Shown here in pieces: positions 12 to 7,074 of a stretch of 7,735 bases of DNA. The translations under genes were made by a program, and so were the position numbers. Source of the stretch: Nitrospinae bacterium RIFCSPLOWO2_12_FULL_45_22 (lineage in GTDB: Bacteria; 2-12-FULL-45-22). A model generated the notes under the pieces. It saw nothing but the letters and a program-made list of their open reading frames with translations, was not told the DNA's origin and did not search any database. The stretch covers positions 1 to 7,735 of the forward strand of contig MHDQ01000068.1 in assembly GCA_001803565.1 (NCBI GenBank), in the 5' to 3' direction. Numbering within the stretch: position 1 is the first letter of the stretch; every line of letters begins with the position of its first letter.

Positions 12-1607
12 TCAGGGGCCATTTTGTTTCTTAAGGGATTCGGGCAGGAAGCGACTAAAGGCACCGTCCGAGCTTTTTTTTCGGAAATGCCTGAACTCGG
101 GCTTTTGGGCAATAGTACGGGCATAAAGGTTCAAGCCCTTGATAAAGACGGTCTCCCATACCTGCCCACCGAGGACAAATATAGTCCCCGGGACGGCCTG
201 CAGTCCGATCTCTCCTACTTCCCTGCCACTATCTCTATCTATCACCCGATACTCTCTGTGGGATGGTATATTGGAGTGGATAAGACCCCGCTCGGCCAGG
301 TCCATAAGCTTAGTAGTAGCACAGAACCGCTCCGGGCGATAAGTGATATATTCCAGGTCTATGAGGTGGTTCAAGATAGCTTCTAGTTGGGAAGGATTAG
401 CCAGGGGTCTGAGCAATGCCTCCAGGTTAGCCTTTTGTTCTCCCCTGGTATGGCAAAAGAGATAGGAAAATATCTGCTGCACGATTACTGATAAATCTGG
501 CTCATAATCTAATGGCTCGATCTCACCCAGCCGCGCCATATCGGCATAGAGCTGGAAGCAGGCCCGCTCACCTTCATCAGCAAAATAACCCAGGGCCTGC
601 ATGACTTCCTCGCGGCGACACCCACGGCCAATACGCTGCTGGAAAGAAGAGGGTGTAGGGGGTGGGTGATAACAGGCGACACCGTCAAAATCCCCAATAT
701 CTATCCCGATCTCGAGGGTAGTAGTCGCTACACAGATACCCCAGCGCCATTCCCGTAAGACCTTCTCGGTGGTCTCCCGCACCTGTTTGGATAGGCTCCC
801 ATGATGGATAACGATCCGGTCTGCTGGCCAGAGGGCCTTTAGCTCTGTCCCCAGTCGCTCTACATCCCGTCTGCTATTGGCAAAGATAAGGACTTTATGC
901 ATCCCCTCTCGCCTAATGAATCCGATCAACTCCCCTAAGTCAGAAAATAGATGCAGATGAAAGGGTCTGGGCTCTCCTAATTTAATCGGCATAACGGGCT
1001 GGAAATAGCGTTGAGCCGTCTCTTCGGGGTTATATAGCGTAGCAGATAAGGCGGCATAATGCAGGGGCTCAGTAACATGCTCCCACCTTATCCGCTCCAG
1101 CAAGACCCGCAGTTGATCACCCCGGTAACTGGCATCTACCAGATGGATCTCATCCAGTATAATGGCTTTTAGGGTTTTCCAGATCTGAGGGTAACGACAG
1201 AGCATAGAGTCAAGGGACTCTGGTGTAGTAAAGAGCACTTGCTCGGGCTTTCTTACGGAGTATTCAGGCCGGTCACCCGTCCTCATGGCTGCCCTTAACC
1301 CACACCTCTCCAGGATATCTTTTAGCCGATAATAGATATTGTTCACTAAGGCCCGGGTAGGCGCTACATAGAGGATATTGAGCCCGGTATCTGTCCCGCT
1401 TCCTTCCAGCCTTTCGACCAGGGGGGCAAATGCCGCTTCTGTTTTTCCACTAGCTGCCGGAGAGGATATAATAACGTTCTCACCCGCAAGGATACAGGGG
1501 ATAGCAGCTAATTGTATTGGGTTGAGCCTGCCGAACCGGCTGAAGAAGGGGCTCCAGGTCTTCCTGAGCTTCTTTTTAAGGCTGAACAGTTCTGCCGTGG
1601 AATGCAT
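12..1607 (-). CDS. Lhr-like superfamily 2 DEAD/DEAH-box helicase (BREX BrxHI-like), compact form
   Basis: Predicted ATP-dependent DNA helicase or translocase, 531 aa. All core SF2 motifs are visible: Q-motif-like segment around 25-32 (ends NPIQ), motif I SPAASGKTEA at 49-58, motif Ia APTRALV at 82-88, TTPESL at 127-132, motif II LDEIH at 151-155, motif III SAT at 188-190, motif V TTTLEIGIDIG at 295-305, and motif VI QRIGRGCRR at 324-332. After the two RecA-like domains, residues about 365-445 look like a winged helix and about 450-500 like the start of the Lhr beta-barrel (VGEIG, VLGGQVW). Lhr proteins and BREX helicases are usually longer, so this is a short form, but the end looks natural and a second in-frame stop follows six bases after the first. 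ATG 1605-1607 is the only usual start between the upstream in-frame stop (1656-1658) and motif I. It has no clear Shine-Dalgarno site and overlaps ATPase B by 32 bp, so coupled translation is likely. Assignment as an Lhr-like helicase is firm; the defence role is inferred from its neighbours. Confidence 0.93.
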   Translation of the reverse strand: MHSTAELFSLKKKLRKTWSPFFSRFGRLNPIQLAAIPCILAGENVIISSPAASGKTEAAFAPLVERLEGSGTDTGLNILYVAPTRALVNNIYYRLKDILERCGLRAAMRTGDRPEYSVRKPEQVLFTTPESLDSMLCRYPQIWKTLKAIILDEIHLVDASYRGDQLRVLLERIRWEHVTEPLHYAALSATLYNPEETAQRYFQPVMPIKLGEPRPFHLHLFSDLGELIGFIRREGMHKVLIFANSRRDVERLGTELKALWPADRIVIHHGSLSKQVRETTEKVLREWRWGICVATTTLEIGIDIGDFDGVACYHPPPTPSSFQQRIGRGCRREEVMQALGYFADEGERACFQLYADMARLGEIEPLDYEPDLSVIVQQIFSYLFCHTRGEQKANLEALLRPLANPSQLEAILNHLIDLEYITYRPERFCATTKLMDLAERGLIHSNIPSHREYRVIDRDSGREVGEIGLQAVPGTIFVLGGQVWETVFIKGLNLYARTIAQKPEFRHFRKKSSDGAFSRFLPESLKKQNGP

Positions 1608-2952
1608 GGGACAATAGGAGATCCGGGTCTTCTGACGGATAGAAGCGATGGAAGTCTAGACACTCTACCATGGCCTTGATAAACCTGCGAGTAGAATGAT
1701 AACTGTTGGCCTTTACCAGTTCAAAGAGCCGCCTCCGGTACCCTTTGGGCATCTGGAGTTGATATACCCTTTCGTATAGCTCTATGAACCGATAAAAAAG
1801 ATATTCCATCTGCTGTGCGGCTAGAGATTCTAATTCTATCTCGTAAATATTGTAGCCGCGAGGGATATTTAGCTTAAAGTCCGGGGTAAAGGCAAAGACA
1901 ACTTTAAGAAAACTCGGCAACTGATATATGTAACGAATGGGTTGATGGCCAGAATATACCAGTCCGGTTTGTTTGCCATAGTAATAATAATCTCCCCGCA
2001 CCACCCTCTCTTCTTCTAGCTCCGGCTCGTCATTAGCTACCATCGAGAGGGCATTAAAGAAATTAACTGCCCGAGCCCATTCATAGATATAGCGATAAGT
2101 GCGGGAGGTCTCTGCCTCATCAAACATCAGGAGCATACCCCGGAGCCCCAATTCTCTTACCGCCAGCATACTTATCCCGCTAAGGATATGACAGTATATA
2201 TTAGCAGCAGTAGTATGATCATAAAGGGCGCCTAGCTCCGAATAGTTTGTCTCCTGGCCTTCTATCCATTCCCACATCTCCGGGGTATCCCTGGCTTCCC
2301 TAATCTTCTCTAAGACTTTTCCTAAGAACCGGTGGTCGGACAAGGGATTCGGCTGGGAGTTTTTGCTTACCAGGCTTAACATTTCGCGGAAGTTATAGTA
2401 CTGGCCCTGGTAAGGGAACCTGAGGTTTCGGATCAGGTGGCGATACACCCTCTTAGGGAAGGCAGCCTGGGCATCGCAAGGGTCTATCCCTACGAGGCTG
2501 ACGGCATAATTTAGCTCAAATCCGTTATCATGCAGATACTCAATCAGGTGACTCTTACCACTGCCATATTCCCCCCGGATAACCATAGTACCGGAAGACT
2601 CATCCCGGAGCCATCCCTGAACTTTTTCTAGCTCGCGGGCCCGACCCACAGTCCATTCTCTTATTGCCTGGGCCGGGACAATCCCTAAGCGGAATGCCTC
2701 AATGACCGAGCGGGCTTCTTTGGGTATCTGGGGCTTAGGCCTTATCTCTGGTTTAAGCTGGTAGGTTCTACGCGGCTGCTTCGCTAGAAAGGTTGCAGTC
2801 CCTAAAAAGGTAAGGTAGGGCTTCTTTATCCAGAGCTGCAAAGAATTAGGGAATCGGACCAGGTACTCATGACCATAATGCCGCTGGTCAATCACTACGC
2901 CATCACCAAATATGCCATGTCTCACCCGGGGATATTCAATTAACTCCACCAC
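1576..2952 (-). CDS. BrxC/BrxD-like (DUF2791) P-loop ATPase B with N-terminal SH3-like segment
   Basis: Predicted AAA-type ATPase, 458 aa. Walker A is GEYGSGKSH at residues 127-135, and Walker B is LLMFDEAE at 274-281, with acidic D278/E279 expected to bind Mg and activate water. The GEYGSGKSH and FDEAE signatures, and the TVGRARELE lead-in at 101-109, match the BrxC/BrxD (DUF2791) family in my recollection. Residues about 7-50 (RVRHGIFGDGVV, then LVRFPN) look like the small SH3-like barrel found at the C terminus of UvrD/PcrA helicases, which may contact nucleic acid or protein; ATPase A lacks it. A basic pair R422-R423 in the C-terminal helical part could be a sensor or finger, which is speculative. 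Start is GTG 2950-2952, two bases after the ATPase A stop, with GGAGG seven bases upstream inside the preceding gene; a second GTG follows directly. It overlaps the helicase gene by 32 bp. ATPase assignment is firm, family fairly sure, function in defence inferred. Confidence 0.92.
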   Translation of the reverse strand: MVELIEYPRVRHGIFGDGVVIDQRHYGHEYLVRFPNSLQLWIKKPYLTFLGTATFLAKQPRRTYQLKPEIRPKPQIPKEARSVIEAFRLGIVPAQAIREWTVGRARELEKVQGWLRDESSGTMVIRGEYGSGKSHLIEYLHDNGFELNYAVSLVGIDPCDAQAAFPKRVYRHLIRNLRFPYQGQYYNFREMLSLVSKNSQPNPLSDHRFLGKVLEKIREARDTPEMWEWIEGQETNYSELGALYDHTTAANIYCHILSGISMLAVRELGLRGMLLMFDEAETSRTYRYIYEWARAVNFFNALSMVANDEPELEEERVVRGDYYYYGKQTGLVYSGHQPIRYIYQLPSFLKVVFAFTPDFKLNIPRGYNIYEIELESLAAQQMEYLFYRFIELYERVYQLQMPKGYRRRLFELVKANSYHSTRRFIKAMVECLDFHRFYPSEDPDLLLSHAFHGRTVQP

Positions 2953-2954
2953 CT

Positions 2955-4205
2955 TTATCCCTCCAGGAGTTTTATGCTTAGTTCTCTATTAAGGGTTTTC
3001 GTTGGCTCCTTCCTCAGCATATGGAAGGCCCTAATGGCTCCTTGAACAAAGAGTCTTATGTAACCTATATCACCAAATCGGCGCTCATATGCCTCTTCGG
3101 CCAGGCGGCGAATGATATCACCGGCTATATCGCCAGCAAAAGAGTGTTCATAAGCTTCTTCATATATGCTCCTGAGCTTCTGGCCAATCTCCTCCAGCAA
3201 GGCTATAGGCTCACGATCCATATCTTCCAGGTTGATCTTTACCCCCGAGGGGTTATAGAAGTCAAATACACTGGATATGCGCTGTTTCAATGCCTCATAT
3301 ACATTGGAAGCGCCTTCAAAGATATTCTCATCTGGTATAGCATAAAAGATCATCACGTTCTTGAAAGAGGCATGACCACATTCATCAATCAGCTCCCGGA
3401 GGTTGCTAAGCATCAGTTCGCGCTGTTTACTGCTGAGGCTAGGCACTTGCTCAGCCTCATCAAATAGGATCACTAAGCCCGAATATCCTATATTCCTTAC
3501 CCATTGAATAAGCGAACGGATCATAGAAAAGGCATTGCTGCGCTCAATGGGATGCAACAGGCCATACTCCTTATGCAAATTACGTTCATAACCCTCTACC
3601 CGTAACCACTGGATGATATTACGAGAGTCTTCTTCCCGGTCCTGATGTAGGAAGAGGAAGGCCTGGGATATTGCCCGAGCAAAATTGACATTTTCGAGGT
3701 CCCTTTGGATAGCCTTGGCATAGTTAATAAGCTCCTGGTCCAGGGTCTCTCCCTGCAACCCCGCATCCCGGAAGCTCTCAGTCTGTCTCTCATACCAGTT
3801 TATAATAAAAGGCTCAATCCCCTTTTCTACCCCTTTCAAAAGCTCTTCGGCATCCATGGGATACATGAGATTATTGACAATAGCCCGGTAGACCAATTCT
3901 AGCCGGTGGAATGGGGCCTCTTCCGGGCTCAAGTTGACATAGCTTACAACAAAGTTTTCGTTCCAGGCCAGCTCCCGGACATTATATAAAAAGTGGGTCT
4001 TGCCACCGCCATAAGCGCCAATTACCAGCTTGATGGTAGAGCCACCATCGTCTTTAATGAAGGTCTTTAAGTATTCTTCGTCAATCAGGTTAAGATACTC
4101 CTCCAGTCCTACGGTAAAGTACTGAAATCCCCACTCGGGTGGTGTGCCAAAAGAGCCCACCGTCTCAATGATCCGCCGTGCGCTCTTTTTATCCAACTGA
4201 TTCAT
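2955..4205 (-). CDS. BrxD-like (DUF2791) P-loop ATPase A
   Basis: Predicted AAA-type ATPase, 416 aa. It opens with a helix, SARRIIETVG at residues 8-17, and a TVGLEEYL element at 31-38, the usual entry to BrxD-type proteins. Walker A is GAYGGGKTH at 63-71 and Walker B LVILFDEAE at 244-252. The next conserved element, IFYAIPDENIF at 286-296, sits where sensor 1 would be expected. The C-terminal part (about 330-415) is helical and ends with a basic region. In BREX, BrxD accompanies an Lhr-like helicase; here the same pairing recurs without the other BREX genes. Start is ATG 4203-4205 with AGGAG at 4215-4219, a good Shine-Dalgarno site. The gene is 52 bp downstream of the coiled-coil gene and 2 bp upstream of ATPase B, so one transcript is likely. 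ATPase A and B are clearly distinct sequences, not recent duplicates. Annotation as a nucleotide-binding ATPase is secure; partner DNA and role are not visible. Confidence 0.92.
   Translation of the reverse strand: MNQLDKKSARRIIETVGSFGTPPEWGFQYFTVGLEEYLNLIDEEYLKTFIKDDGGSTIKLVIGAYGGGKTHFLYNVRELAWNENFVVSYVNLSPEEAPFHRLELVYRAIVNNLMYPMDAEELLKGVEKGIEPFIINWYERQTESFRDAGLQGETLDQELINYAKAIQRDLENVNFARAISQAFLFLHQDREEDSRNIIQWLRVEGYERNLHKEYGLLHPIERSNAFSMIRSLIQWVRNIGYSGLVILFDEAEQVPSLSSKQRELMLSNLRELIDECGHASFKNVMIFYAIPDENIFEGASNVYEALKQRISSVFDFYNPSGVKINLEDMDREPIALLEEIGQKLRSIYEEAYEHSFAGDIAGDIIRRLAEEAYERRFGDIGYIRLFVQGAIRAFHMLRKEPTKTLNRELSIKLLEG
2960..2964 (-). promoter_or_regulatory. Ribosome binding site of ATPase B, inside the end of ATPase A
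   Basis: GGAGG on the minus strand lies within the last codons of ATPase A and seven bases before GTG 2950-2952. This decides in favour of a GTG start that is not preceded by any ATG option nearby. The arrangement suggests coupling of ATPase B translation to termination of ATPase A. Confidence 0.8.
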
Positions 4206-4214
4206 ACAAACCTT

Positions 4215-4219
4215 CTCCT
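4215..4219 (-). promoter_or_regulatory. Ribosome binding site of ATPase A
   Basis: AGGAG on the minus strand, nine bases before the ATG at 4203-4205, with further purines (AAGG) closer to the start. It supports this start codon and shows that ATPase A can be translated independently of the upstream gene. Confidence 0.75.
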
Positions 4220-4244
4220 ACATGCATCTATTCATGCTATCCGT

Positions 4245-4266
4245 GTTCTATGTCGTTCTATGTCGT
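4245..4266. repeat. 10-bp tandem repeat spanning the coiled-coil gene stop codon
   Basis: The plus-strand unit GTTCTATGTC occurs twice in a row and then two more matching bases follow (about 2.2 copies). The TAG stop of the coiled-coil gene (4258-4260) is inside it. Because the repeat carries its own stop, gaining or losing one unit would alter only the spacer before ATPase A, not the protein. Origin by slippage is an inference. Confidence 0.9.
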
Positions 4267-5127
4267 GGCCCCCTGACGGAAGTATACCGAGGCAAAGTGG
4301 GTACCATCACCCCTTGGATTAGTCGGGATCCAAAGGTTATCCTCTTTCGTTTTGGTCTGTTCCCGGCTAGCTACTGCCAACCGTAATTCGTATTGGCCGT
4401 ATTCTCGCTGTTTTAAGCAATAGAGATCGTAGCTCAGTTGCGTGCGGCCATAACTCTTGAAATGCTCTCTGCGGGGATCAGTGAGAAAGTCCTTACCCTG
4501 CTTGAGCCAGGCTATCTCCCTGAGCCAATAAATAATAGAAACATTGGCCCCCAATTCCAACCCCTCCCTCTTCATCAAACTACTATAAGCCTCAAACAGA
4601 AGTTTAAGGAAATCCCTCTCCTCCTTAAAGCTGGCATTATCCAGGTCGGTATAGGTTTTTATTACGGTATTTACCAGCTCATCAGTTACGAGCTGGGCCC
4701 GGCCCAGCAGCTCTATCTTGGGACCATACCAAATTCTAACCTGGCCCTGGGATAATAAAAACTCCAGGGTCAACACTCCTACCCTTAACTCGGGTAAATT
4801 ACCTTCTATCTTCCAGCCTTTCTCCTCAAACCTGCGCTCCAGCTCTGCCCCTAAATAAGCCTTGAGCTTATGCTTAGGATGCTCCAGTAATTTTTTCCTC
4901 TCTTCCACAAATTCCTTTACATTTTTCAAGTTCTCGTGGAGCTCCTCCAGCTCCTTTATCTGGCCTAGCCTTTGCTCCACCTTCTTTAGTCTCTCCTCTA
5001 TCTGATAGGCATTTTTATCTATATCTTTTTCTAAATACTCTCCTTCCTTGAGATACTTCTCTATCTCCCCTAGTATCTGCCTACTCTGATTTATCTTTTT
5101 ACGCAATTCCTGATAAGTATTTGCCAT
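4258..5127 (-). CDS. Coiled-coil protein of unknown function, first gene of the ATPase/helicase cassette
   Basis: I do not recognise a named family for this 289 aa protein. Residues about 5-85 are strongly charged with heptad-like spacing (runs of E, K, L and I), so a long coiled coil is very likely. Residues 86-289 look globular: a beta-rich stretch at about 104-145 (GWKIEGNLPELRVG, then VRIWYGPKIELL), a helical stretch at about 147-212, and a C-terminal part with YGRTQLSYDLYCL at 226-238 and a final strand-like ASVYFRQG at 279-286. No Walker motifs, metal-binding cysteines, signal peptide or membrane segment are seen, so it should be cytoplasmic. Start ATG 5125-5127 follows GGAGG with 10 bases between. 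It heads the operon and may be the sensor, adaptor or effector of the ATPase/helicase system (inference from position). The stop codon lies inside a 10-bp tandem repeat. The reading frame is secure; function is unknown. Confidence 0.85.
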   Translation of the reverse strand: MANTYQELRKKINQSRQILGEIEKYLKEGEYLEKDIDKNAYQIEERLKKVEQRLGQIKELEELHENLKNVKEFVEERKKLLEHPKHKLKAYLGAELERRFEEKGWKIEGNLPELRVGVLTLEFLLSQGQVRIWYGPKIELLGRAQLVTDELVNTVIKTYTDLDNASFKEERDFLKLLFEAYSSLMKREGLELGANVSIIYWLREIAWLKQGKDFLTDPRREHFKSYGRTQLSYDLYCLKQREYGQYELRLAVASREQTKTKEDNLWIPTNPRGDGTHFASVYFRQGATT

Positions 5128-5137
5128 GTTTAATAAA

Positions 5138-5142
5138 CCTCC
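5138..5142 (-). promoter_or_regulatory. Ribosome binding site of the coiled-coil gene
   Basis: GGAGG on the minus strand, ten bases from ATG 5125-5127. The spacing is slightly long. The spacer itself forms most of the odd palindrome GTTTATTAAAC (5128-5138), so a DNA-binding protein or an RNA fold there could affect initiation; that is speculative. Confidence 0.75.
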
Positions 5143-5151
5143 AATGGGATC

Positions 5152-5179
5152 AGTTTAACAGATAGGGAGAAAAATTCAA
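5152..5179 (-). promoter_or_regulatory. Candidate sigma-A promoter of the four-gene cassette
   Basis: On the minus strand a -35-like TTGAAT (5174-5179) is followed after 16 bases by a -10-like TAAACT (5152-5157). Each matches the consensus at four of six positions. Transcription would begin around 5145 and give a leader of roughly 18 bases holding the GGAGG. No strong intrinsic terminator lies between the LysR stop and this site, so read-through from the LysR gene is also possible. This is a moderate match only. Confidence 0.4.
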
Positions 5180-5273: not shown

Positions 5274-6176
5274 TCATAAAGAGGTCTTAAGGCATTCTAG
5301 TAGGAAATCGTTAAGGGCCTGGCATAAAGGCGAGGTCGTCCTGGTTTTATTGACAACTATATAAAAATCTCTCTGAAAAATTATCCCCTGAATGGGGATC
5401 TCTTTCAAAAGGCTACCCCTCAATTCCTCCTCCACTGCCCTTTTAGAGACAATAGATACTCCTACGCCGGTCTTGATCCCCTGGATAACCGCTTCAGTGC
5501 TACCCATCTCGGCTACTACCTGCAAAGATCTGCTATTTATCCCTCGCTTTGCCAGAGCTTGCTCCATAATCTTTCTGGTACCAGAACCTTTCTCCCGCAT
5601 AATGAAAGGCTCTTCCAGCAGTTGCCTGGCAGATATAGACCTTTTCTTTACCCAGGGGTGCTTCGGTGGGACTACTAAGATCAATACATCCTTCACAAAG
5701 TCTCTATAATCAAGCTTCCCATCCTCCCATTTAGCCCCCACCACACCTAATTCTAATCGCCCTTCCAAAACATCCTGAACCACTTCCTGGCTATCGCTTA
5801 TCTTCAAAATAATCTGGATCTCGGGATATTCTTCCTTAAACTTACCTAGCGCCTGGGGCAAGATATAAGTACCAGGGATAGTGCTGCCCCCTATAGTTAG
5901 CCTCCCCCGCATCCGCCCCTGGAACTGATTGATGGCTTGCTGGGCCTCTTGATACAACCCTAAAAGCTTCTGCGCATAGCTATAGAGGACTTCCCCACCT
6001 TTAGTAAGAACCACTTCTCTTCCCAGGCGGTCAAAGAGCTTAACCCCAAAGGCCTCTTCCAGTGACTGGATATGCTCACTGACCGTAGGCTGAGACAGGA
6101 GCACCGCCTCGGCTGCCTTAGAAAAGCTCTTCAGGTCCGCAATCTTACAAAATATCTCTAATCGTCTTAAGTCCAT
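5274..6176 (-). CDS. LysR-family transcriptional regulator (resembles the selenium-metabolism-associated subfamily)
   Basis: Predicted DNA-binding transcription factor, 300 aa, the normal LysR length. Residues 1-60 form the winged helix-turn-helix, including SFSKAAEAVLLSQPTVSEHI at 17-36 and LFDRLGREVVLTKGG at 47-61. Residues about 90-295 form the periplasmic-binding-protein-like effector domain, with the family-typical GVGVSIVSKRAVEEE segment late in it. The overall style matches the LysR subfamily labelled selenium-metabolism-associated in Clostridia and also the CysB/CbbR-like group; no selenium gene is in the window, so that label is tentative. Start ATG 6174-6176 lies inside the radical SAM gene (32 bp overlap), with only a weak AGG upstream, suggesting coupled translation. 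LysR proteins often control an adjacent divergent gene; here the neighbour is co-directional, so its targets may be elsewhere or include its own operon. Confidence 0.93.
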   Translation of the reverse strand: MDLRRLEIFCKIADLKSFSKAAEAVLLSQPTVSEHIQSLEEAFGVKLFDRLGREVVLTKGGEVLYSYAQKLLGLYQEAQQAINQFQGRMRGRLTIGGSTIPGTYILPQALGKFKEEYPEIQIILKISDSQEVVQDVLEGRLELGVVGAKWEDGKLDYRDFVKDVLILVVPPKHPWVKKRSISARQLLEEPFIMREKGSGTRKIMEQALAKRGINSRSLQVVAEMGSTEAVIQGIKTGVGVSIVSKRAVEEELRGSLLKEIPIQGIIFQRDFYIVVNKTRTTSPLCQALNDFLLECLKTSL

Positions 6177-7074
6177 CCAGCCTATACAAACTCACTCTTA
6201 GCGCAGCCTTGACCGCCGCTTCATATTCATCTGAGGTTATACGCCGGCCCAGGTACGGGTCCCCTATAGCCTTAAAGCAAGGCCTATACTGATCCATCAT
6301 ATTAACGTAAGTGTTGGAAGAAACCTCCCGGGCGATAAAAGACATGATTTCCTCAGTGCCAGCCAGACCCTGTGGTAATACCAGATGGCGTACCAGTAAG
6401 CCCCGTTGAGCTATACCCCGGCTATCTATAATTAAATCACCTACCTGACGGTGCATCTCTTGTAAGGCTGCCTTAGCCCTCTCGGGATAGTCCCTTGCCA
6501 GGGAGTATTTCTCTGCTACTTCCGGGTCGGCATACTTGAAATCGGGCATATAGATATCAAAGATACCCTCCAGGAGTTGCAATATTGTCAGGGACTCGTA
6601 GCCGCCACAGTTATATACCAGGGGTAGGTTCAGCCCCCCTTCCACCGCTAGCCCCAGGGCTTGAAGGATTTGGGGGACAAAGTGGGTTGGGGTAACAAAA
6701 TTGATATTATGACAGCCCTGCCTTTGTAATTCCAGCATGTATTGAGCCAGGTGCCCGGCTGAGACCTTATGCCCTTGGGCCTTATGGCTTATATCGTAAT
6801 TCTGGCAGAAGATACAACCAAGGTTACAATTGGTAAGGAATATGGTCCCGGAACCACTATAGCCTACCAGGGGCCGTTCCTCACCATAGTGGGGGCCATA
6901 ACTGGATACCATAGCTTGTTTGCCACTGCGACAAAACCCCTCTTCATCAGCCAGGCGATTCACGCCGCAATGCCGTGGACAGAGAGAGCATTTTTCCATA
7001 AGCTTATATGCCGCTGCTATTCTCTCTCTTAGTACCCCTTTCGCAGCCAGCTCCAAATATGCTGCCCGGAACAT
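6145..7074 (-). CDS. PflX-type radical SAM protein (COG1313-like, pyruvate formate-lyase activase homologue)
   Basis: Predicted radical S-adenosylmethionine enzyme, 309 aa. The radical SAM CX3CX2C motif is CNLGCIFC at residues 83-90 (C83, C87, C90), expected to hold a [4Fe-4S] cluster that cleaves SAM. An N-terminal cysteine set C29, C32, C36 and C48 (CSLCPRHC, then GFCRSG) is typical of the PflX group and may bind a second metal or cluster. Further recognisable parts are NFVTPTHFVP at 125-134, YNCGGYES at 154-161, MPDFKYAD at 176-183 and HLVLPQG at 230-236. The family is related to glycyl-radical enzyme activases, but its substrate is unknown to me and no glycyl-radical enzyme is present here. 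ATG 7072-7074 is preceded by purine-rich GGAAAGG, a reasonable ribosome binding site. It overlaps the LysR gene by 32 bp, so the two are probably one transcript. Enzyme class is secure. Confidence 0.93.
   Translation of the reverse strand: MFRAAYLELAAKGVLRERIAAAYKLMEKCSLCPRHCGVNRLADEEGFCRSGKQAMVSSYGPHYGEERPLVGYSGSGTIFLTNCNLGCIFCQNYDISHKAQGHKVSAGHLAQYMLELQRQGCHNINFVTPTHFVPQILQALGLAVEGGLNLPLVYNCGGYESLTILQLLEGIFDIYMPDFKYADPEVAEKYSLARDYPERAKAALQEMHRQVGDLIIDSRGIAQRGLLVRHLVLPQGLAGTEEIMSFIAREVSSNTYVNMMDQYRPCFKAIGDPYLGRRITSDEYEAAVKAALRVSLYRLDGLKTIRDIL

What the first reader, a model, noticed from the sequence alone, without database searches (positions are those of the whole stretch)
12..5179. Four-gene cassette: coiled-coil protein, two different BrxC/D-like ATPases and a compact Lhr-like helicase, without the BREX core
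Seen: four co-directional genes, 2 bp spacing and a 32 bp overlap among the last three, a candidate promoter at the front, intact Walker and helicase motifs. Known: BrxD-type DUF2791 ATPases and Lhr-like BrxHI helicases occur in BREX phage defence loci with PglZ, PglX and others. Inference: the pairing here, with a new coiled-coil gene and no PglX, PglZ or nuclease in view, is a separate BREX-related system that may defend against foreign DNA or survey DNA. Related Ter-linked neighbourhoods with TerB-type domain proteins are a possible relative, though no such protein is seen.
Basis: partly seen in the sequence, partly recalled or inferred. Interest (0 to 1): 0.85.

Follow-up and report, generated by a model that had tools for sequence, protein, structure and literature searches.

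The report
Four-gene two-ATPase–helicase cassette, probably defensive
Four bacterial genes (a coiled-coil protein, two different ATPases and a DNA helicase) travel together as one unit between very different bacteria and on plasmids, apparently as a separate relative of the known phage-defence systems Shango and BREX that no model or paper I searched describes.

Summary
In detail: four co-directional minus-strand genes encode a coiled-coil protein, two different BrxD-type ATPases (A, B) and a compact BrxHI/SngC-like helicase. The unit is real. I found the same order (cc-A-B-helicase) at 20 places including the window, in at least nine phyla. Two are named plasmids: Desulfomonile tiedjei pDESTI.01, with no PglX or PglZ annotated, and Aulosira laxa plasmid3, directly behind a BREX locus that has its own BrxD-BrxHI pair. 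The cassette helicases form one fully supported clade apart from the Shango and BREX helicases sampled. In the window's lineage the four genes co-vary with each other but not with rpoB, and the closest relative is a cross-phylum transfer. No TerB protein is present; the first protein matches no known family convincingly. New anatomy: in the window-type lineage ATPase B begins with a UvrD/PcrA-Tudor-like domain; in another lineage the helicase is fused to a Cas4/Dna2-like nuclease and a second helicase. Best reading: a mobile, probably anti-phage system in which two ORC/Cdc6-type ATPases load or license the helicase on foreign or abnormal DNA. Function is untested. Novelty: new variant of a known kind.

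The parts
4258..5127 (-). Gene 1 (cc), 289 aa: N-terminal coiled-coil-like helices (about residues 1-100) followed by a conserved ~190-residue domain; no known family
   Evidence: ORF; no Pfam/NCBIfam/PADLOC/PHROG family beyond weak coiled-coil matches; 12-member alignment A5
2955..4205 (-). Gene 2, ATPase A, 416 aa, full-length BrxC_BrxD (PF10923) AAA+ ATPase
   Evidence: 46-83% identical to the closest homologues
3996..4019 (-). ATPase A Walker A, GAYGGGKT
   Evidence: sequence; conserved block in alignment A2
1576..2952 (-). Gene 3, ATPase B, 458 aa, divergent BrxD-type ATPase with an added N-terminal domain; GTG start
2803..2952 (-). N-terminal small domain of ATPase B, UvrD/PcrA Tudor / CarD-RID-like
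   Evidence: profile A10 best PDB hits are UvrD/PcrA C-terminal domains, E 6.5e-4; Pfam PcrA_UvrD_tudor matches 5 of 10 members, CarD_TRCF_RID 2 of 10, the window's own copy none
2551..2574 (-). ATPase B Walker A, GEYGSGKS
12..1607 (-). Gene 4, SF2 helicase of the BrxHI/SngC (Lhr-like) group, 531 aa, without the C-terminal extension present in longer relatives (662-720 aa)
1440..1463 (-). Helicase motif I, SPAASGKT
   Evidence: sequence; alignment A4
1143..1154 (-). Helicase motif II, DEIH
621..638 (-). Helicase motif VI, QRIGRG

Best explanation
The four genes form one operon and one machine: a mobile defence or DNA-surveillance system, sister to the BrxD-BrxHI (BREX-2/6) and SngB-SngC (Shango) pairs. 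SHOWN: fixed gene order in many phyla, common descent of the helicases and probably of each ATPase, cross-phylum transfer as a unit, intact ATPase and helicase motifs, a Tudor-like domain on B in the window lineage, nuclease-helicase fusion in another lineage. INFERRED: A and B form a hetero-oligomeric ORC/Cdc6-like AAA+ assembly. The first protein is its scaffold or DNA-reading adaptor, in the place TerB holds in Shango. In the window lineage B's Tudor domain tethers the assembly to RNA polymerase or to another partner carrying the Tudor-binding motif, so that foreign DNA that is being transcribed or is structurally abnormal is recognised. ATP-driven loading then places the helicase, which unwinds or strips the DNA. 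The DNA is cut by the fused PD-(D/E)XK nuclease where present, otherwise by a host or unlinked nuclease.
For: Recurrence: 20 loci in the same order. Searches with the first protein alone: all 9 full-length homologues, including the window, sit beside A-B-helicase. One helicase clade with 100% support apart from the Shango and BREX helicases sampled; B on one side of a branch (90%), A not rejected as one clade (AU p 0.315). Pairwise identities of the four genes correlate among themselves (0.79-0.91) but not with rpoB (-0.12 to -0.28) in 11 loci outside the phylum of G117; window versus G265 is 70-83% in the cassette and 60% in rpoB although they are different phyla. Mobile or defence context: complete on a 27-kb plasmid with AbiEi/AbiEii; on a conjugative plasmid 173 nt behind PglX-PglZ-BrxD-BrxHI; beside a tyrosine recombinase homologue in G602 and near an AbiEii homologue in G118. 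Patchy: 11 of 386 genomes of many groups, 6 intact of 232 in one phylum. Relatives with tested defence: Shango (PMC10250203) and BREX-2; SngC and BrxHI fall in a helicase clade defined by antiphage functions (PMC12278908). Tudor: and PcrA's Tudor binds RNAP beta (PMC8318588). Nuclease: PD-(D/E)XK-type motif plus Cys cluster and SF1 Walker A, with only weak Pfam support.
Against: No phage or plasmid challenge exists. Most chromosomal copies sit among ordinary genes rather than defence islands. The compact window version has no nuclease in view. Within the phylum of G117 the cassette may largely follow the species. RNAP tethering rests on a weak profile match; a strict Tudor-binding motif was seen in RpoB of only 4 of 15 genomes, the window's own among them. 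Both structure predictions failed (pLDDT 41 and 40), so complex formation is untested.
Confidence: 0.6

Rival explanations
1. A horizontally spread genome-maintenance module, not a defence system: the Tudor-bearing ATPase and the Lhr-like helicase act at stalled RNA polymerase, R-loops or damaged DNA of the host.
For: UvrD/PcrA-type Tudor domain, whose known role is in RNAP binding and R-loop suppression (PMC8318588); ordinary chromosomal neighbours such as gyrase genes in L009; NCBIfam's ligase-associated DNA-damage helicase is among the top matches of the window helicase.
Against: Patchy distribution, cross-phylum transfer at 70-83% identity and lack of correlation with rpoB; presence on plasmids and next to BREX; no Tudor domain in the plasmid and G117-phylum versions; closest families are defence proteins.
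Confidence: 0.22
2. It is Shango with a diverged TerB gene and a duplicated ATPase.
For: SngC ties with BrxHI for the helicase and SngB matches ATPase A; similar order of adaptor, ATPase, helicase.
Against: No TerB_N or TerB_C match in any of 12 first-gene proteins although true triads give strong TerB matches; helicases form a clade apart from Shango with 100% support; BrxD outscores SngB for A.
Confidence: 0.08
3. An accessory module of BREX (a second BrxD-BrxHI set serving a BREX core located elsewhere).
For: In Aulosira it follows a BREX locus directly and co-directionally; homology to BrxD and BrxHI.
Against: Stands without an annotated PglX or PglZ on the complete Desulfomonile plasmid and without one adjacent in most loci; in Aulosira BREX keeps its own BrxD and BrxHI. 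Whole genomes were not searched for an unlinked core.
Confidence: 0.1

Closest known systems
Shango (SngA TerB protein, SngB ATPase, SngC helicase)
   Same: Operon of an adaptor protein, BrxD-type ATPase and Lhr/Ski2-type helicase, chromosomal and plasmid-borne; defence tested in P. aeruginosa and E. coli (PMC10250203)
   Different: No TerB; first protein unrelated by profile search; two ATPases instead of one; helicase in its own clade
BrxD-BrxHI dyad of BREX types 2/6
   Same: ATPase-helicase pair of the same families; a helicase-loading role has been proposed (PMC12839542)
   Different: No PglX, PglZ or BrxC as a cassette partner; a second ATPase and a new first gene; separate clades. The main text of the 2026 BREX survey does not describe this set
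Dpd / YprA-type systems (DpdJ, DrmA, DruE, ARMADA)
   Same: Defence loci built around SF2 helicases; PADLOC DpdJ matches parts of the helicase weakly
   Different: Helicase is BrxHI/SngC-like, DpdJ is not its best match; the YprA survey (PMC12458937) does not mention BrxD or Shango
PcrA/UvrD C-terminal Tudor domain
   Same: Sequence profile of the N-terminal domain of ATPase B
   Different: Placed at the N-terminus of an AAA+ ATPase instead of the C-terminus of an SF1 helicase

Membership tests
BREX (any type) | PglZ and, except type 4, a PglX-type methyltransferase with BrxC | tested here: not met
   None annotated on the complete Desulfomonile plasmid; none in the part of the PADLOC list shown for 74 flanking proteins of 20 loci. 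Window contig is cut at position 1, so untestable there. One locus (Aulosira) adjoins a BREX locus
BREX (any type) | BrxD equivalog score (NF033438 cut-off 350 bits) | tested here: not met
   ATPase A 152 bits, B 55 bits
Shango | TerB-domain protein SngA | tested here: not met
   12 first-gene members: no TerB match; positive controls L060 and L061 match TerB_N/TerB_C
Shango | Single SngB ATPase | tested here: not met
   Two ATPases in 20 of 20 loci
Shango | SngC helicase | tested here: not met
   Homologous (1.8e-68) but in a separate, 100% supported clade
PF10923 BrxC_BrxD ATPase family | Score above the gathering cut-off and Walker A/B motifs | tested here: met
   A 179 bits, B 73 bits, cut-off 22.2; motifs
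BrxHI/SngC helicase group | SF2 core plus best match to BrxHI/SngC | tested here: met
UvrD/PcrA Tudor domain | Significant profile match | tested here: inconclusive
   PDB profile E 6.5e-4; Pfam best E 0.0011, 5 of 10 members match at E up to 1; the window copy alone has no match
Anti-phage defence system | Protection in an assay | not testable with these tools

The most novel reading that the evidence does not exclude
A previously undescribed immune machine in which a two-subunit ORC/Cdc6-like ATPase, tied to RNA polymerase by a UvrD-type Tudor domain, senses foreign DNA through its transcription and loads an Lhr-type helicase (in some lineages fused to a Dna2/Cas4-like nuclease) on it: a transcription-coupled DNA defence.
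Probability: 0.2. Interest if true: 0.85.

Novelty: new variant of a known kind. Interest (0 to 1): 0.62.

Why it matters
It adds a third branch to the BrxD/BrxHI-type ATPase-helicase machines, whose mechanism is unknown in both Shango and BREX-2. Its extra parts (a second ATPase, an apparent RNA-polymerase-binding domain, and a fused nuclease in one lineage) suggest what the shared engine does, and a complete copy on a small plasmid of a cultured bacterium makes it testable. Carriers in the phylum of G117 include small-genome bacteria (1.3-2.9 Mb), where one would not expect many defence systems.

Tried and rejected
Structure prediction of the first protein (2-sequence alignment) and of ATPase B (single sequence) gave pLDDT 41 and 40; not used for fold searches. 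Phage and viral contigs: no relative of the first protein, and none of ATPase B in viral contigs. Conserved fifth gene: all-against-all of 189 flanking ORFs gave no family shared widely. Defence-island enrichment by PADLOC: no clear enrichment. Idea that G117-type loci are Dpd systems: their ATPases match BrxD, not Dpd proteins. Phylum searches of most carriers returned only 1-9 genomes. Papers: nothing found for DUF2791, or for Desulfomonile with BREX; the library holds open-licence papers only.

Full report
OBSERVATION. The window holds four minus-strand genes: cc (289 aa), ATPase A (416 aa), ATPase B (458 aa), helicase (531 aa). A matches Pfam BrxC_BrxD along its length (1.6e-52); B matches it weakly (3.9e-20), its best stretch being the P-loop third; the helicase is DEAD plus Helicase_C. 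In PADLOC, A is closest to BrxD (2.7e-44), then SngB; the helicase ties between SngC and BrxHI; the first protein matches only coiled-coil parts of unrelated proteins. NCBIfam agrees, and no equivalog cut-off is met. The window is the end of a 12.4-kb contig of a fragmented genome assembly (3.67 Mb, 321 contigs).

RECURRENCE. A search of about 100 genomes from many groups with the first protein alone hit two others, G044 and G059, and both carry cc-A-B-helicase in order. A profile of B over 386 genomes of many groups, and follow-up searches, gave further copies: G137 (two, one with its helicase cut by the contig end), G274, G363, G118, G202, G349, G117, G602, G506. In the 232-genome phylum of G117 the first protein alone found six more genomes beyond G117: five carry all four genes in order, the sixth (G925) is a remnant. 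Plasmid records added Aulosira laxa NIES-50 plasmid3 and Desulfomonile tiedjei pDESTI.01. In all: 20 loci with the four genes in order, plus G265 (cc-A-B together, helicase intact on another contig) and G790 (B-helicase at a contig edge). Gaps are mostly short or overlapping. The phylum searches returned separate groups for G059, G137, G363, G202, G118, G265 and G117; with the window's own group and at least one of Cyanobacteriota and Thermodesulfobacteriota this is at least nine phyla.

DESCENT. Helicases of 21 cassettes form one side of a 100%-supported branch against 12 Shango, BREX and similar helicases. B is one side of a branch (90%); A needs one extra change but one clade is not rejected (p-AU 0.315); A and B together are one side against BrxD/SngB (85%). 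These are quick trees and some B rows are long branches. Identity matrices of the four genes correlate with each other (0.62-0.74 over 21 loci; 0.79-0.91 over 11 loci outside the G117 phylum) but in those 11 loci not with rpoB (-0.12 to -0.28). With the G117 phylum included the correlation with rpoB is 0.42-0.57. The window and G265 share 71/83/70/77% in cc/A/B/helicase against 60% in rpoB. So the cassette moves between phyla as a unit, and in G265 the helicase shows the same elevated identity although it is now unlinked.

CONTEXT. On pDESTI.01 (27 kb) the cassette is complete with no PglX or PglZ annotated, and AbiEi/AbiEii are on the same plasmid. On the conjugative Aulosira plasmid it lies 173 nt behind PglX-PglZ-BrxD-BrxHI, co-directional, as a second, distinct ATPase-helicase set. 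G602 has a tyrosine recombinase homologue just upstream and G118 an AbiEii homologue nearby. Most other neighbours are ordinary, and no fifth gene recurs widely. True TerB triads were used as contrast.

ANATOMY. (i) Ten window-type B proteins begin with a ~50-residue domain, H-x3-G-x-G...V-x-F, whose profile best matches UvrD/PcrA C-terminal domains in the PDB (E 6.5e-4) and Pfam PcrA_UvrD_tudor (5 of 10 members; the window copy alone gives none); CarD_TRCF_RID matches 2. PcrA's Tudor domain binds a motif in RNAP beta and in other partners (PMC8318588). A strict form of that motif occurs in the window genome's RpoB and in 3 of the other 14 RpoB proteins examined. The plasmid and G117-phylum versions of B lack the domain. 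(ii) G349, G117, G933, G913, G865 and G965 have 1576-1828-aa helicases. Four of these six show a PD-(D/E)XK nuclease motif by my strict pattern, all six show a Cys cluster and an SF1 Walker A, with Pfam AAA_11/AAA_12 in the three scanned and only weak PDDEXK_1/Cas4 scores: a Dna2/Cas4-like nuclease-helicase fused to the BrxHI-like core. (iii) In G363 ATPase A carries an N-terminal HTH_17 DNA-binding domain. (iv) The window helicase (531 aa) lacks the C-terminal extension of the 662-720-aa forms.

MECHANISM. Shown: unit, descent, transfer, motifs, domains. Inferred: the two ATPases act together as an ORC/Cdc6-like loader, as proposed for BrxD with BrxHI (PMC12839542); the first protein is the adaptor in TerB's place; Tudor or HTH domains aim the complex; helicase, and nuclease where fused, act on DNA. 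Shango protects against phages (PMC10250203), and SngC and BrxHI fall in a helicase clade defined by antiphage functions (PMC12278908). Defence is therefore the most likely role (0.6), with transcription-linked genome maintenance the main rival.

KNOWN OR NEW. It fails defining tests of Shango (TerB, single ATPase, helicase clade) and of BREX (PglX/PglZ, BrxD equivalog score). The main texts of a 2026 BREX survey and a 2025 YprA-helicase survey do not describe it. No PADLOC 2.0.0 model covers the first protein. I file it as a new variant of the BrxD-BrxHI type of ATPase-helicase system.

Noticed in passing
L062:1-2593 (genome G035): A BrxD-type ATPase and BrxHI-like helicase follow a protein with sigma-70 regions instead of TerB: another adaptor swap in the same scheme.
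   Followed up: no
L060:2-1390 (genome G231): The TerB protein of this triad has a RecU-like Holliday-junction-nuclease domain at its cut N-terminus.
   Followed up: no
L068 (NZ_CP034187.1 32995-51354, Deinococcus psychrotolerans plasmid): Two ATPase-helicase units of this group in a row, whose helicases bear the same protein accession.
   Followed up: no
L094, L095, L096, L097, L099: Relatives with two adjacent ATPases but no or only a very weak match to the first gene; in L094 and L095 ATPase A is longer (558 and 651 aa).
   Followed up: partly
L051:12136-16998 (genome G363): A 1621-aa protein with an AAA domain directly upstream and co-directional with the cassette.
   Followed up: no
L067 and L139 (Sulfitobacter and Mesorhizobium plasmids): TerB-ATPase genes (followed by the helicase in Mesorhizobium) stand behind DUF1403 and ScpB-like genes in both.
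   Followed up: no
window 5274-7074: A LysR regulator and a radical SAM protein overlap by about 30 nt upstream of the cassette; ordinary neighbours, apparently unrelated.
   Followed up: no
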